Below, one piece after another: positions 29,801 through 38,800 of a stretch of DNA of 64,000 nt; within the stretch, counting starts at the first letter, position 1; every line of letters begins with the position of its first letter. Position numbers and translations under genes: made by a program. This DNA comes from Owenia fusiformis (Eukaryota > Annelida > Polychaeta > Sabellida > Oweniidae), in assembly GCA_903813345.2 (NCBI GenBank), contig CAIIXF020000010.1, positions 26,126,425 to 26,190,424 of the forward strand. The letters run 5' to 3'. Below the pieces are notes generated by a model that ran no database searches, had not been told where the DNA came from, and was given only the letters and a program-made list of their open reading frames with translations.

Positions 29801-32800
29801 AGGGAAGTTATGTTTAATGTGACATGTTTGATGGAGCTTATATGCCACATATTTGTCATTTCATTTGTAATGCACATTAATTTTATGTATACAATAGAAA
29901 GTTTGAACACATGAGAGAATGAACAATTGACAAATTTTTTTACAGTTCAACATGAAAATCAAGGCTGAAACATTCATTTCCATTTTACTGACCCTGAACT
30001 CGTTCCCATATTGAAATCTGACCAAGCAAATATTTCAACAATTTTTAAATTCAGACAAAATTCTAATTTATTTATACCTTATGGAAGAATGGAAAACTCG
30101 AAAGTACAATGTATGTAGAACATAAAATCAAAATTCTGTACTGTACCTTAAATCACATTGCTGACAAAGGAAACCCAGCGTCACCTTCAGAATTCATTAT
30201 TCAAATTTTGCATATTCCAAATATGTGATCTATTGAGTCCTTCACCACAAATTCAACATCAATTTCCTCAATCTGTCCCTGTATTAACTTGTTGATATAT
30301 TGAATTAGATTCAATGTGTGTTTTTTACTGTGGGGGCTTAAACGTGAAGGTGTATCACACAAATAAAGCCAAGCTCTGTACTGTTATTTAAATTGTATTT
30401 AATAGGATAATGATAGGCTACGCTTGGTACTCTTGGTGAAAATGTGTCAAAATAGGTCATGACCCTTAGATCATTGGAAACTAACATTTAAGGATGTAAA
30501 ATGTCAACTCAGGTATGGGACTGGAGGGGGGGGGGCGAGGCAAGATATATTTCAAGAAAATGAATGATTACAATTATCAGAGATACATGGCCATACAGAC
30601 AAGAGTAAGGTAATATCAGTGATTTTCAGAACTAAAATAAATGAACTCAGGAATACAAAAAACATGTTTTGTGAGGAAACAGGGATTTTTATAATATAAG
30701 TATAAGGGTATTCTATTCACATTAGTGTTTTACTGACAGGTTTTGTTGCTCTTTCCTAGGAAACTTGTGGCAGAAATATACAACATCTACACTTTTTGAA
30801 TCATATTGGGTGCCACACCCACTTGTACCATTTAGAAACCAACTGGAACTAACCAGTATGTTAATGTTAAGTCACACCTTTATTCAAATGGAAAGTGGCA
30901 TGTCTGACTGAGAATCACTTAAAAGTATATTTTGAAGATCTAACCTTTTCTTTCTGCTTGGCTGCATTCTCCAGCAGTTGCATTTGTTGGTTTTTCAGCT
31001 CTGCAATCCTCTCCCTGTCTCTCTTTAACTGTTCCATCTCATTTTGATGTTCCCCCTCCAACAAGGCACGCTCCATCTCCAGCTAGAACAGAAATCATTT
31101 CTTCAATTGTATGCTATGTAACGTAACACTAGATGAAATACCTGTGAATTGGATCGATATTTGGAAATCTCACTTAGTCACATTTGACAAATCTACATTA
31201 TTACACGACCCACTATATCAACAAAAATGAAGTTTGAAGGCTCAGATACTTCTCCAGAGGGAGTGGGCAATGAGGCAAGCTAATGCCTTTATTGGGTTGA
31301 TATGGTCTTACCTCTCTAATACTTCTCCAGAGGGAGTGGGCAATGAGGCAAGCTAATGCCTTGATATGGTCTTACCTCTCTAATACTTCTACAGAGGGAG
31401 TGGGCAATGAGGCCAGCTAATGCCTTGATATGGTCTTACCTCTCTAATACTTCTCCAGAGGGAGTGGGCAATGAGGCAAGCTAATGCCTTGATATGGTCT
31501 TACCTCTCTAATACTTCTCCAGAGGGAGTAGGCAATGAGGCAAGCTAAAGCCTTGATATGGTCTTACCTCTCTAATACTTCTCCAGAGGGAGTGGGCAAT
31601 GAGGCCAGCTAATGCCTTGATATGGTCTTACCTCTCTAATACTTCTCCAGAGGGAGTGGGCAATGAGGCAAGCTAATGCCTTTATTGGGTTGATATGGTC
31701 TTACCTCTCTAATACTTCTCCAGAGGGAGTGGGCAATGAGGCAAGCTAATGCCTTTATTGGGTTGATATGGTCTTACCTCTCTAATACTTCTCCAGAGGG
31801 AGTGGGCAATGAGGCAAGCTAATGCCTTTATTGGGTTGATATGGTCTTACCTCTCTAATACTTCTCCAGAGGGAGTGGGCAATGAGGCAAGCTAATGCCT
31901 TTATTGGGTTGATATGGTCTTACCTCTCTAATACTTCTCCAGAGGGAGTGGGCAATGAGGCAAGCTTATGCCTTGATATGGTCTTACCTCTCTAATACTT
32001 CTCCAGAGGGAGTGGGCAATGAGGCAAGCTAATGCCTTGATATGGTCTTACCTCTCTAATACTTCTCCAGAGGGAGTGGGCAATGAGGCAAGCTAAAGCC
32101 TTGATATGGTCTTACCTCTCTAATACTTCTCCAGAGGGAGTGGGCAATGAGGCAAGCTTATGCCTTGATATGGTCTTACCTCTCTAATACTTCTCCAGAG
32201 GGAGTGGGCAATGAGGCAAGCTAATGCCTTGAGTTGATATGGTCTTACCTCTCTAATACTTCTCCAGAGGGGTGGGCAATGAGGCAAGCTAATGCCTTGA
32301 TATGGTCTTACCTCTCTAATACTTCTCCATAGGGAGTGGGCAATGAGGCAAGCTAATGCCTTGATATGATCTTACCTCTCTAATACTTCTCCAGAGGGAG
32401 TGGGCAATGAGGCAAGCTAATGCCTTTATTGGGTTGATATGGTCTTACCTCTCTAATACTTCTCCAGAGGGAGTGGGCAATGAGGCAAGCTAATGCCTTG
32501 ATATGATCTCACCTCTCTAATACTTCTCCAGAGGGAGTGGGCAATGAGGCAAGCTAATGCCTTGATATGATCTTACCTCTCTAATACTTCTCCAGAGGGA
32601 GTGGGCAATGAGGCAAGCTAATGCCTTGAGTTGATATGGTCTTACCTCTCTAATACTTCTCCAGAGGGGTGGGCAATGAGGCAAGCTAAAGCCTTGATAT
32701 GGTCTTACCTCTCTAATACTTCTCCAGAGGGCCGGGCAATGAGGCAAGCTAAAGCCTTGATATGGTCTTACCTCTCTAATACTTCTCCAGAGGGGTGGGC

Positions 32801-35800: not shown

Positions 35801-38800
35801 GGTGGGCAATGAGGCAAGCTAATGCCTTGGGTTGATATGGTCTTACCTCTCTAATACTTCTCCAGAGGGAGTGGGCAATGAGGCAAGCTAATGCCTTTAT
35901 TGGGTTGATATGGTCTTACCTCTCTAATACTTCTCCAGAGGGAGTGGGCAATGAGGCAAGCTAATGCCTTGATATGGTCTTACCTCTCTAATACTTCTCC
36001 AGAGGGGTGGGCAATGAGGCAAGCTAAAGCCTTGATATGGTCTTACCTCTCTAATACTTCTCCAGAGGGGTGGGCAATGAGGCAAGCTAAAGCCTTGATA
36101 TGGTCTTACCTCTCTAATACTTCTCCAGAGGGGTGGGCAATGAGGCAAGCTAAAGCCTTGATATGGTCTTACCTCTCTAATACTTCTCCAGAGGGAGTGG
36201 GCAATGAGGCAAGCTAATGCCTTGATATGGTCTTACCTCTCTAATACTTCTCCAGAGGGAGTGGGCAAAGAGGCAAGCTAATGCCTTGATATGGTCTTAC
36301 CTCTCTAATACTTCTCCAGAGGGAGTGGGCAATGAGGCAAGCTAATGCCTTGATATGGTCTTACCTCTCTAATACTTCTCCAGAGGGAGTGGGCAATAAG
36401 GCCAGCTAATGCCTTGATATGGTCTTACCTCTCTAATACTTCTCCAGAGGGAGTGGGCAATGAGGCAAGCTAATGCCTTGATATGGTCTTACCTCTCTAA
36501 TACTTCTCCAGAGGGAGTGGGCAATGAGGCAAGCTAATGCCTTGATATAGTCTTACCTCTCTAATACTTCTCCAGAGGGAGTGGGCAATGAGGCCAGCTA
36601 ATGCCTTGATATGGTCTTACCTCTCTAATACTTCTCCAGAGGGAGTGGGCAATGAGGCAAGCTAATGCCTTGATATAGTCTTACCTCTCTAATACTTCTC
36701 CAGAGGGAGTGGGCAATGAGGCCAGCTAATGCCTTGATATGGTCTTACCTCTCTAATACTTCTCCAGAGGGAGTGGGCAATGAGGCAAGCTAATGCCTTG
36801 ATATAGTCTTACCTCTCTAATACTTCTCCAGAGGGAGTGGGCAATGAGGCCAGCTAATGCCTTGATATGGTCTTACCTCTCTAATACTTCTCCAGAGGGA
36901 GTGGGCAATGAGGCAAGCTAATGCCTTGATATAGTCTTACCTCTCTAATACTTCTCCAGAGGGAGTGGGCAATGAGGCCAGCTAATGCCTTGATATGGTC
37001 TTACCTCTCTAATACTTCTCCAGAGGGAGTGGGCAATGAGGCAAGCTAATGCCTTGATATGGTCTTACCTCTCTAATACTTCTCCAGAGGGAGTGGGCAA
37101 TGAGGCAAGCTAATGCCTTGATATGGTCTTACCTCTCTAATACTTCTCCAGAGGGAGTGGGCAATGAGGCAAGCTAATGCCTTGAGTTGATATGGTCTTA
37201 CCTCTCTAATACTTCTCCAGAGGGAGTGGGCAATGAGGCAAGCTAATGCCTTGATATGGTCTTACCTCTCTAATGGCCTCATTCTGCTGGGCCTCTATCT
37301 CCATAATCTGTTGTTTCAGTGAGGCCACATTGTGTATGGACTCAGTCCAGCTAATGCCTTGATATGGTCTTACCTCTCTTATAGCCTCATTCTGCTGGGC
37401 CTCTATCTCCATAATCTGTTGTTTCAGTGAGGCCACATTGTGTATGGACTCAGTCCAGCTAATGCCTTGATATGGTCTTACCTCTCTTATAGCCTCATTC
37501 TGCTGGGCCTCTATCTCCATAATCTGCTGTTTCAGTGAGGCCACATTGTGTATGGACTCAGTCCAGCTAATGCCTTGATATGGTCTTACCTCTCTTATAG
37601 CCTCATTCTGCTGGGCCTCTATCTCCATAATCTGCTGTTTCAGTGAGGCCACATTGTGTATGGACTCAGTCCAGCTAATGCCTTGATATGGTCTTACCTC
37701 TCTTATAGCCTCATTCTGCTGGGCCTCTATCTCCATAATCTGTTGTTTCAGTGAGGCCACATTGTGTATGGACTCAGTCCAGCTAATGCCTTGATATGGT
37801 CTTACCTCTCTTATAGCCTCATTCTGCTGGGCCTCTATCTCCATAATCTGCTGTTTCAGTGAGGCCACATTGTGTATGGACTCAGTCCAGCTAATGCCTT
37901 GATATGGTCTTACCTCTCTTATAGCCTCATTCTGCTGGGCCTCTATCTCCATAATCTGTTGTTTCAGTGAGGCCACATTGTGTATGGACTCAGTCCAGCT
38001 AATGCCTTGATATGGTCTTACCTCTCTTATAGCCTCATTCTGCTGGGCCTCTATCTCCATAATCTGTTGTTTCAGTGAGGCCACATTGTGTATGGACTCA
38101 GTCCAGCTAATGCCTTGATATGGTCTTACCTCTCTAATAGCCTCATTCTGCTGGGCCTCTATCTCCATAATCTGCTGTTTCAGTGAGGCCACATTGTGTA
38201 TGGACTCAGTCCGCTGTCCCTTCAACTTGTCAATCTGAACTCGGAGATCAGGCTGAAAAACATTTCAAATACAAGTGACCTATCATACCAATTGTTCTAA
38301 AATATTATATTTCCTCTCCAACTCCAGATTCAAGTTTGATGTACATGCATGTACATTGTCATGTATATAAAGTCTACCGTGACCTTATATTGTACCTTAA
38401 CACTAGTTTCCTGTTAAAATGACACATAAAATGTCCAGTAATCTACATCTATCCTACATAACTTCATTCATAAGTATTAGTAACTTCTAACTACAACTTT
38501 AAGTTTCATTTTCAACTTGGTTGCTTCCTCAATCTTGCACTTTGACTGTTTACGATTAGATTGAAACATTTTAGGAATCTGATCCACCCTAACTTACCAT
38601 GTTTCAAGCTGAATGTATCTTATTACAACAATATTAGACTATTCCCATGTCTTTCCTTTAATAAAGTATTCCTAAATTTCTCATTGATTCCAGTTTGCAT
38701 TGTATTCAATGCAAGTGCGTAAATATTCAAAGAATTCCAATGACTCAAAGGATGGCATTGAATTGTGTTAAGCTTTATTTAAATTGTATTATAGATAAGA

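What the first reader, a model, noticed from the sequence alone, without database searches (positions are those of the whole stretch)
31246..38252. A 7-kb array of about 100 strong 5' splice sites inside one PHLDB intron
The sequence shows directly that the repeat unit spans an exon-intron border: exon end, gag|gtaaga, and the first 23 nt of the intron. The unit is repeated about 90 times after nine longer copies. In the primary transcript this is an array of near-identical U1 snRNA binding sites facing a single good acceptor at 31083. Donor choice, intron retention, or U1-dependent suppression of premature polyadenylation (an established effect of intronic U1 sites) could all be affected. I know of no described minisatellite of this kind.
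Basis: partly seen in the sequence, partly recalled or inferred. Interest (0 to 1): 0.85.

Follow-up and report, generated by a model that had tools for sequence, protein, structure and literature searches.

The report
Minisatellite grown from an exon-intron border
A worm gene carries about a hundred tandem copies of one of its own splice donor sites; this is a large case of a repeat type already described in amphioxus and human genes, and the same genome holds more of them.

Summary
On the minus strand, a 123-nt coding exon (38252-38130) ends in GAG|GTAAGA, and that border is repeated in tandem: 9 borders in 108-bp units, then 90 in 63-73-bp units. Of these 99 borders 98 keep GT, and one acceptor follows at 31083.

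The claim that no such minisatellite is described is wrong. Tandem repeats spanning exon-intron borders are called 'mirages' in amphioxus (PMC3087553, PMC3902484), and human IFI6 has a minisatellite providing multiple splice donors.

The genome looks like the annelid Owenia fusiformis. Similar arrays recur: two more in this gene, and 13 of 21 donor-rich arrays read elsewhere are clear coding exon|donor borders, among them Rab27, UGDH, WD40 and kringle exons.

Donors 1-9 keep the frame open; donors 10-99 all lead to a stop. The likeliest reading is tandem duplication of a border, tolerated because the exon-proximal donor still gives normal mRNA. No RNA evidence was available, so donor use and any U1 effect are untested.

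The parts
38130..38252 (-). coding exon (41 codons, phase 0/0) whose 3' border seeded the array
   Evidence: tttttcag|CCTGAT...AGAGAG|GTAAGACC, open frame
37241..38212 (-). zone of nine borders in 108-bp units (about 83 nt exon + 25 nt intron); open in frame throughout
   Evidence: TRF; splitting; frame
31246..37274 (-). zone of 90 borders in 63-73-bp units (about 10 nt exon end + about 54 nt intron)
   Evidence: TRF (31297-37274); splitting; outer boundary read
38129..38129 (-). first intron base at the exon-proximal donor (donor 1); donor 9 at 37265, donor 10 at 37201, donor 99 at 31311
31083..31110 (-). 3' end of the intron, acceptor ...gatttctgttctag
30945..31082 (-). next coding exon (46 codons)
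25268..25586 (-). second donor-border array in the same gene: 64 bp x 5, ...GAAACTAG|GTCAGTACTTATATGA
27886..28090 (-). acceptor-border array in the same gene: 104 bp x 2, ...GTATTTGTAG|AGAGAGAGCAAGG
14445..14960 (-). PH-domain exon on the same strand, downstream in the gene (basis of the PHLDB label)
   Evidence: Pfam PF00169 1.2e-18; PDB matches are other PH domains, none named PHLDB; the PHLDB assignment is recalled resemblance

Best explanation
It is a 'mirage': a minisatellite born by tandem duplication of a segment that straddled the exon-intron border, with two unit sizes (108 bp, and a shorter mostly intronic one), and expanded by unequal exchange or slippage. The likeliest behaviour is that the exon-proximal donor (38129) is spliced to 31082, so that the other 98 donors are removed as intron and the mRNA is normal; the array is close to neutral. 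Shown: the anatomy, the border content, the frame outcome of each donor, the recurrence of the same kind of array in other genes. Inferred: use of the proximal donor, neutrality, the mutational route.
For: Anatomy. The proximal donor is intact and gives a 123-nt in-frame exon; donors 10-99 would all run into a stop after 348 codons from the exon start. An imperfect 29-unit block duplication, as expected of unequal exchange. Donor columns about as variable as others. The same kind of array in two more places of this gene; in 13 of 21 donor-rich arrays read elsewhere (identities 64-67); at the donor of an STK38-like (NDR/LATS-type) kinase, one of 28 kinase loci; and at an acceptor in the locus of the O. 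fusiformis syt1 primer. Unit length is a multiple of 3 in only 5 of those 13 arrays, as chance predicts, so reading frame does not seem to constrain them. [quoted passage not shown]
Against: No transcript data, so donor use is not shown. The nine 108-bp copies are open and in frame, which would allow exonised products. Donor triplets at 52-82-nt spacing are about 4 times commoner per motif than triplets of one reversed control motif, which simple neutrality does not predict, although the 20-50-nt test showed next to no excess (1.2 times). Length and copy number rest on one assembly.
Confidence: 0.82

Rival explanations
1. The 108-bp copies are alternatively exonised: donors 2-9 are used at times, giving proteins with one to eight extra 36-residue units (coiled-coil segment plus VRPYQGISW).
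For: 108 is a multiple of 3; the frame is open from 38252 through donor 9; the differences among the exonic parts of the 108-bp units are synonymous (CAA/CAG, ATA/ATT, GCT/GCC).
Against: Three variable sites only, so little power; very long exons are less favoured by exon definition (established knowledge); the linker with P, Y, G and W would interrupt a coiled coil (inference).
Confidence: 0.15
2. The array acts on RNA processing as a bank of U1 sites: it suppresses premature polyadenylation or titrates splicing factors, and it is kept for that effect.
For: 98 of 99 U1-pairing sites in sense and no AGGTAAG in antisense; 19 AATAAA hexamers in sense in the same array, in the 73-nt unit type (18 whole units and the last partial one), close to donors, while the 63/64-nt and 68/69-nt types lack the hexamer.
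Against: No excess conservation of the donor columns; the hexamers come from the same intron segment as the donors; no expression data.
Confidence: 0.1
3. The array produces unproductive transcripts: distal donors 10-99 are used often enough to send part of the mRNA to decay and lower expression.
For: All of donors 10-99 give a premature stop.
Against: A costly effect at 90 sites should select for their loss, yet 98 of 99 borders keep GT; inference.
Confidence: 0.08
4. Assembly artefact of a shorter repeat.
For: The length rests on one assembly; the 29-unit block duplication could be an assembly duplication.
Against: Units differ in an ordered way and the duplicated block is imperfect; arrays of the same kind occur in many other genes of the assembly.
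Confidence: 0.05

Closest known systems
Amphioxus 'mirages' (Adh3, globins BflGb6/BflGb9, troponin C, PGBD5)
   Same: Minisatellite-like tandem duplications spanning a 5' or 3' exon-intron border, carrying extra AG/GT splice signals (PMC3087553 and PMC3902484, passages read).
   Different: Here in an annelid-like genome, with 99 borders over 7 kb; the copy numbers in the passages read are 3 to 6 units. Two unit sizes in one array.
Human IFI6 (6-16/G1P3) minisatellite with multiple splice donor sites (Turri et al. 1995)
   Same: A minisatellite supplying repeated splice donors at one intron (known here from its title in reference lists and one sentence of PMC4526556; the paper is not held).
   Different: A short unit (12 bp is recalled, from no call); two downstream repeat units are said to be used as donors there; use is unknown here.
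Variable internal tandem repeats in human genes in segmental duplications (PMC2812944)
   Same: Repeats at an exon-intron boundary may cause novel introns (passages).
   Different: Shorter arrays: about 4 units of 30 bp on average.
U1 telescripting sites
   Same: Sense-strand intronic U1-pairing sites.
   Different: Described as scattered intronic sites, not as a minisatellite (recalled); no functional test here.

Membership tests
mirage (border-spanning minisatellite) | tandem repeat unit spans an exon-intron border | tested here: met
mirage (border-spanning minisatellite) | copies carry the splice signal of the border | tested here: met
   98 of 99 with GT, 95 of 99 GAGGTAAGA
mirage (border-spanning minisatellite) | unit of minisatellite size (10-160 bp in the cases quoted) | tested here: met
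   63-108 bp; range from PMC3087553
mirage (border-spanning minisatellite) | length instability between haplotypes or somatic cells | not testable with these tools
   one assembly only; the block duplication is consistent with it
mirage (border-spanning minisatellite) | normal mRNA in spite of the extra splice sites | not testable with these tools
   no transcript data in reach
IFI6-type donor minisatellite | repeat copies actually used as alternative donors | not testable with these tools
   frame outcomes only
U1 telescripting element | U1 pairing sites in sense | tested here: met
U1 telescripting element | suppression of a nearby intronic poly(A) site | not testable with these tools
   19 AATAAA present, use unknown

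The most novel reading that the evidence does not exclude
In this genome splice donors are preferred seeds of minisatellites: border arrays number in the hundreds because donors promote array birth (for example through co-transcriptional DNA structure at the 5' end of introns) or because arrays of U1 sites are selectively kept. Mirages would then be a genome-wide feature of gene architecture and a source of new introns and donors.
Probability: 0.2. Interest if true: 0.78.

Novelty: new member of a known kind. Interest (0 to 1): 0.45.

Why it matters
In the papers I could read, border-spanning minisatellites appear in a handful of amphioxus genes and in one human gene. Here the same kind of repeat appears in many ordinary genes of what is probably an annelid, at both donors and acceptors, up to 99 copies. 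That makes it testable how the spliceosome chooses among dozens of near-identical donors, whether arrays of U1 sites affect polyadenylation, and whether such arrays feed intron gain.

Tried and rejected
COX1 and GFP family searches of G000 gave nothing; neither is informative (COX1 rang in 8 of 14 controls, GFP in none, and the genome search is exon by exon). Rfam and tRNA scans of the window were empty. A paper search by assembly size gave no usable hit. Pfam hits on the 108-bp open frame (CopB, BBIP10 and others) were set aside: in none did a stretch pass on its own, and the protein is a repeat. Two other long exons of the gene had no Pfam hit. The idea that each short unit is a recursive splice site (a pyrimidine-rich stretch precedes ...TATTAGAGAG|GTAAG) was considered and left as weak because several AGs lie between; not tested.

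Donor-preference tests: AGGTAAGT triplets at 20-50-nt spacing, 238 positions for 19,109 single motifs, against 352 for 33,902 with the reversed motif, a ratio of 1.2; AGGTAAG triplets at 52-82 nt, 2,313 for 62,839 against 703 for 79,990, a ratio of 4.2. These are positions, not independent arrays, and the window's own array adds to the second count; one control motif was used. By clusters in the listings (100 rows each): 5 donor clusters in the first 5.22 Mb of C1 (one GA-rich) against 8 control clusters in all 62.2 Mb of C1; Poisson 0.0007 for 5 and 0.005 for 4. The 5.22-Mb limit was set by where the listing stopped, so this is rough.
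Full report
Observation. The gene lies on the minus strand. Read in sense, an exon of 123 nt (38252-38130, [41 protein letters not shown]) ends in GAG|GTAAGACC, and the next exon starts at 31082 after ctgttctag. Between them the border is repeated. TRF reports 31297-37274 (64 bp x 90.4) and 37241-38212 (108 bp x 9.0). Cutting at AGAGAG|G gives 99 borders, 9 with the long exon part and 90 with the short one; 98 of 99 keep GT, 96 of 99 read AGGTAAG and 95 of 99 GAGGTAAGA. 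Twenty first-order Markov sequences made from the array hold 0.75 AGGTAAG on average, and the opposite strand holds none.

Anatomy. The 108-bp unit is about 83 nt of exon followed by about 25 nt of intron. The short unit is about 10 nt of exon end followed by about 54 nt of intron, in forms of 63, 64, 68, 69 and 73 nt. The 73-nt form carries AATAAA in sense (19 in the array: 18 whole units and the last partial one); the other forms lack it. Coding the units by sequence shows a block of 29 units (~1.9 kb) present twice with differences: at that offset 26 of 70 unit pairs are identical, in runs of 11, 10 and fewer. This is the mark of long unequal exchange or block duplication. Among the 26 distinct short-unit sequences there are 3 substitution types in the 9 donor columns and 15 in the 55 other columns that do not vary in length (my count from the output; the script's own figure of 26 in 64 includes 9 length-variable columns). 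The donor is neither clearly protected nor clearly lost.

What each donor would do. Splicing donor 1 to the acceptor gives the ordinary 41-residue exon. Donors 2 to 9 add 36 residues each and stay open and in frame. Donors 10 to 99 all pass a stop codon after 348 codons from the exon start. An ordinary copy pairs with the U1 5' end over 7 contiguous pairs (-9.6 kcal/mol; a full consensus gives -14.5). U1 genes are present in this genome (42 matches scored, all over the cut-off), and the one read (L002) starts ATACTTACCTG on its own strand. These are predictions from sequence; which donor is used is not known.

Gene. A PH domain lies downstream on the same strand at 14445-14960 (PF00169, 1.2e-18). 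PDB matches are other PH proteins, none named PHLDB, and two long exons upstream had no Pfam hit. The label PHLDB is therefore recalled resemblance.

Organism. The genome has 12 large sequences of 31.9-62.2 Mb among 525, 498.26 Mb in all, and 8-kb pieces of the window are 31-43% GC. The published Owenia fusiformis assembly is 505.8 Mb with 12 chromosome-scale scaffolds (PMC9977687, passages). The syt1 forward primer printed for O. fusiformis (PMC8111721, passages) matches once, exactly, at C11:1988496, with no match for the reversed control. Against this, the elav1 forward primer has no exact match, possibly because it crosses a splice junction, and the syt1 reverse primer was not found in the 5 kb fetched around the forward one, where introns may intervene. 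The sequence after the syt1 primer encodes WAIIAIGIVAVLLILCICFCICKKCCCKK, which I recognise from memory as a synaptotagmin transmembrane segment; Pfam gave only weak hits to other membrane families. I take the genome to be O. fusiformis or a very close relative.

The same thing elsewhere. In the same gene a 64-bp x 5 array at 25268-25586 repeats another donor border, and a 104-bp x 2 array at 27886-28090 repeats an acceptor border. Two further cases turned up without being sought. At the syt1 primer, 12.4 copies of a 69-bp unit repeat the acceptor border (L050:148-1004). Among 28 protein-kinase loci fetched for sampling, one STK38-like (NDR/LATS-type) kinase (L038; best PDB match STK38) has a 23-bp x 35 array beginning at its donor; judged from open-frame limits alone I saw no other border array among the 28.

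I then searched for three exact donors in tandem. The tool lists the first 100 positions: of 238 for AGGTAAGT at 20-50 nt (up to C7:15.8 Mb) these form 16 clusters, and of 2,313 for AGGTAAG at 52-82 nt (up to C1:5.22 Mb) 5 clusters. These 21 clusters were fetched and read. Seven were fetched first, four of them because the unit looked coding, but in the end no listed cluster was left out. Thirteen of 21 are clear coding exon|donor borders: Rab27 (L051, PDB 3.1e-9), an Ig I-set exon (L052, 1.5e-6), a BRCT exon (L059, 1e-10), Muted (L060, 5.9e-15), WD40 (L062, 6.2e-9), UDP-glucose 6-dehydrogenase (L064, 2.2e-18), kringle (L071, 6.6e-6, under the family's cut-off), a tetraspanin-like exon (L058, weak, 0.058), and five supported only by an open frame that runs up to the donor with a plausible acceptor upstream (L053, L054, L055, L067, L068). 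Those five had no Pfam hit; L053 and L054 resemble NCS-1 and DIP2 from memory. Of the other eight, one is probable (L066), two paralogous arrays start at a donor (L056, L069), one is unclear (L057), and four are not borders (L061, L063, L065, L070). The longest of the thirteen are 56 copies of 56 bp (3.1 kb, L062) and 69 copies of 44 bp (3.0 kb, L071). The window's array is larger than any of these but belongs to the same series. Unit length is a multiple of three in 5 of the 13, as chance predicts.

Are donors preferred? With the reversed motif as control, AGGTAAG triplets at 52-82 nt are 3.68% of single motifs against 0.88%, but AGGTAAGT at 20-50 nt gives 1.25% against 1.04%. Positions within one array are not independent, the window's own array is in the first count, there is one control motif, and the cluster comparison is rough. 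The question is open. A total in the hundreds is an extrapolation from the listings, not a count.

Literature. [quoted passage not shown] it proposes them as a route to intron gain. PMC3902484 (passages) adds PGBD5 and troponin C. Turri et al. [quoted passage not shown] I saw the title in reference lists and one sentence of PMC4526556, not the paper. PMC2812944 (passages) says that tandem repeats at exon-intron boundaries may cause novel introns in human genes. For annelids, my searches of this open-licence library showed no report of border-spanning arrays; an earthworm metallothionein paper describes intron-1 minisatellites and exon-4 duplications not represented in the transcript (PMC12783039, passages).

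Verdict. The array is real and correctly read. It is a new and very large member of a known kind. The best reading is a near-neutral by-product of tandem duplication at a border, removed with the intron by use of the proximal donor; that last step is inferred. The wider point, that such arrays recur in many genes of this genome, is the more interesting result.

Noticed in passing
G000:C11:1987648-1988504 (L050:148-1004): 69-bp x 12.4 array repeating an intron-exon acceptor border at the O. fusiformis syt1 primer site.
   Followed up: partly
G000:C9:23745153-23771556: Tandem cluster of more than 30 U1 snRNA genes, mostly at about 750-bp spacing.
   Followed up: no
31246-37274: The 64-nt and 69-nt unit types are 9 and 4 nt shorter than the 73-nt type and both lack its sense AATAAA, consistent with two separate deletions at AA microhomology or with stepwise insertion.
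   Followed up: partly
16836-17102 (+) and 23114-23380 (-): Two open frames with nearly the same 88-residue translation on opposite strands, an inverted pair that may be copies of a mobile element inside the gene.
   Followed up: no
60317-60544 (-) and 60843-61091 (+): Open frames sharing KITCDSIEECRKFP on opposite strands, another inverted pair.
   Followed up: no
5443-7077 (+): Single open frame of 544 aa that looks like a UDP-glucuronosyltransferase (recalled resemblance, not searched).
   Followed up: no
62266-63579, 50025-50547, 49282-49654, 4310-5113: Other long minisatellites with units of 18-55 bp and more; TRF gives 36 rows for the window.
   Followed up: no
L038 (C11, STK38-like kinase): 23-bp x 35 array beginning at the donor GTAAGTAATGA, with no exon part in the unit.
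   Followed up: partly
G000:C2:6037766-6038538: An array listed for the control motif GAATGGA holds GGTAAGTTT/GGTGAGTTC in its unit, so control arrays may include donor arrays too.
   Followed up: no
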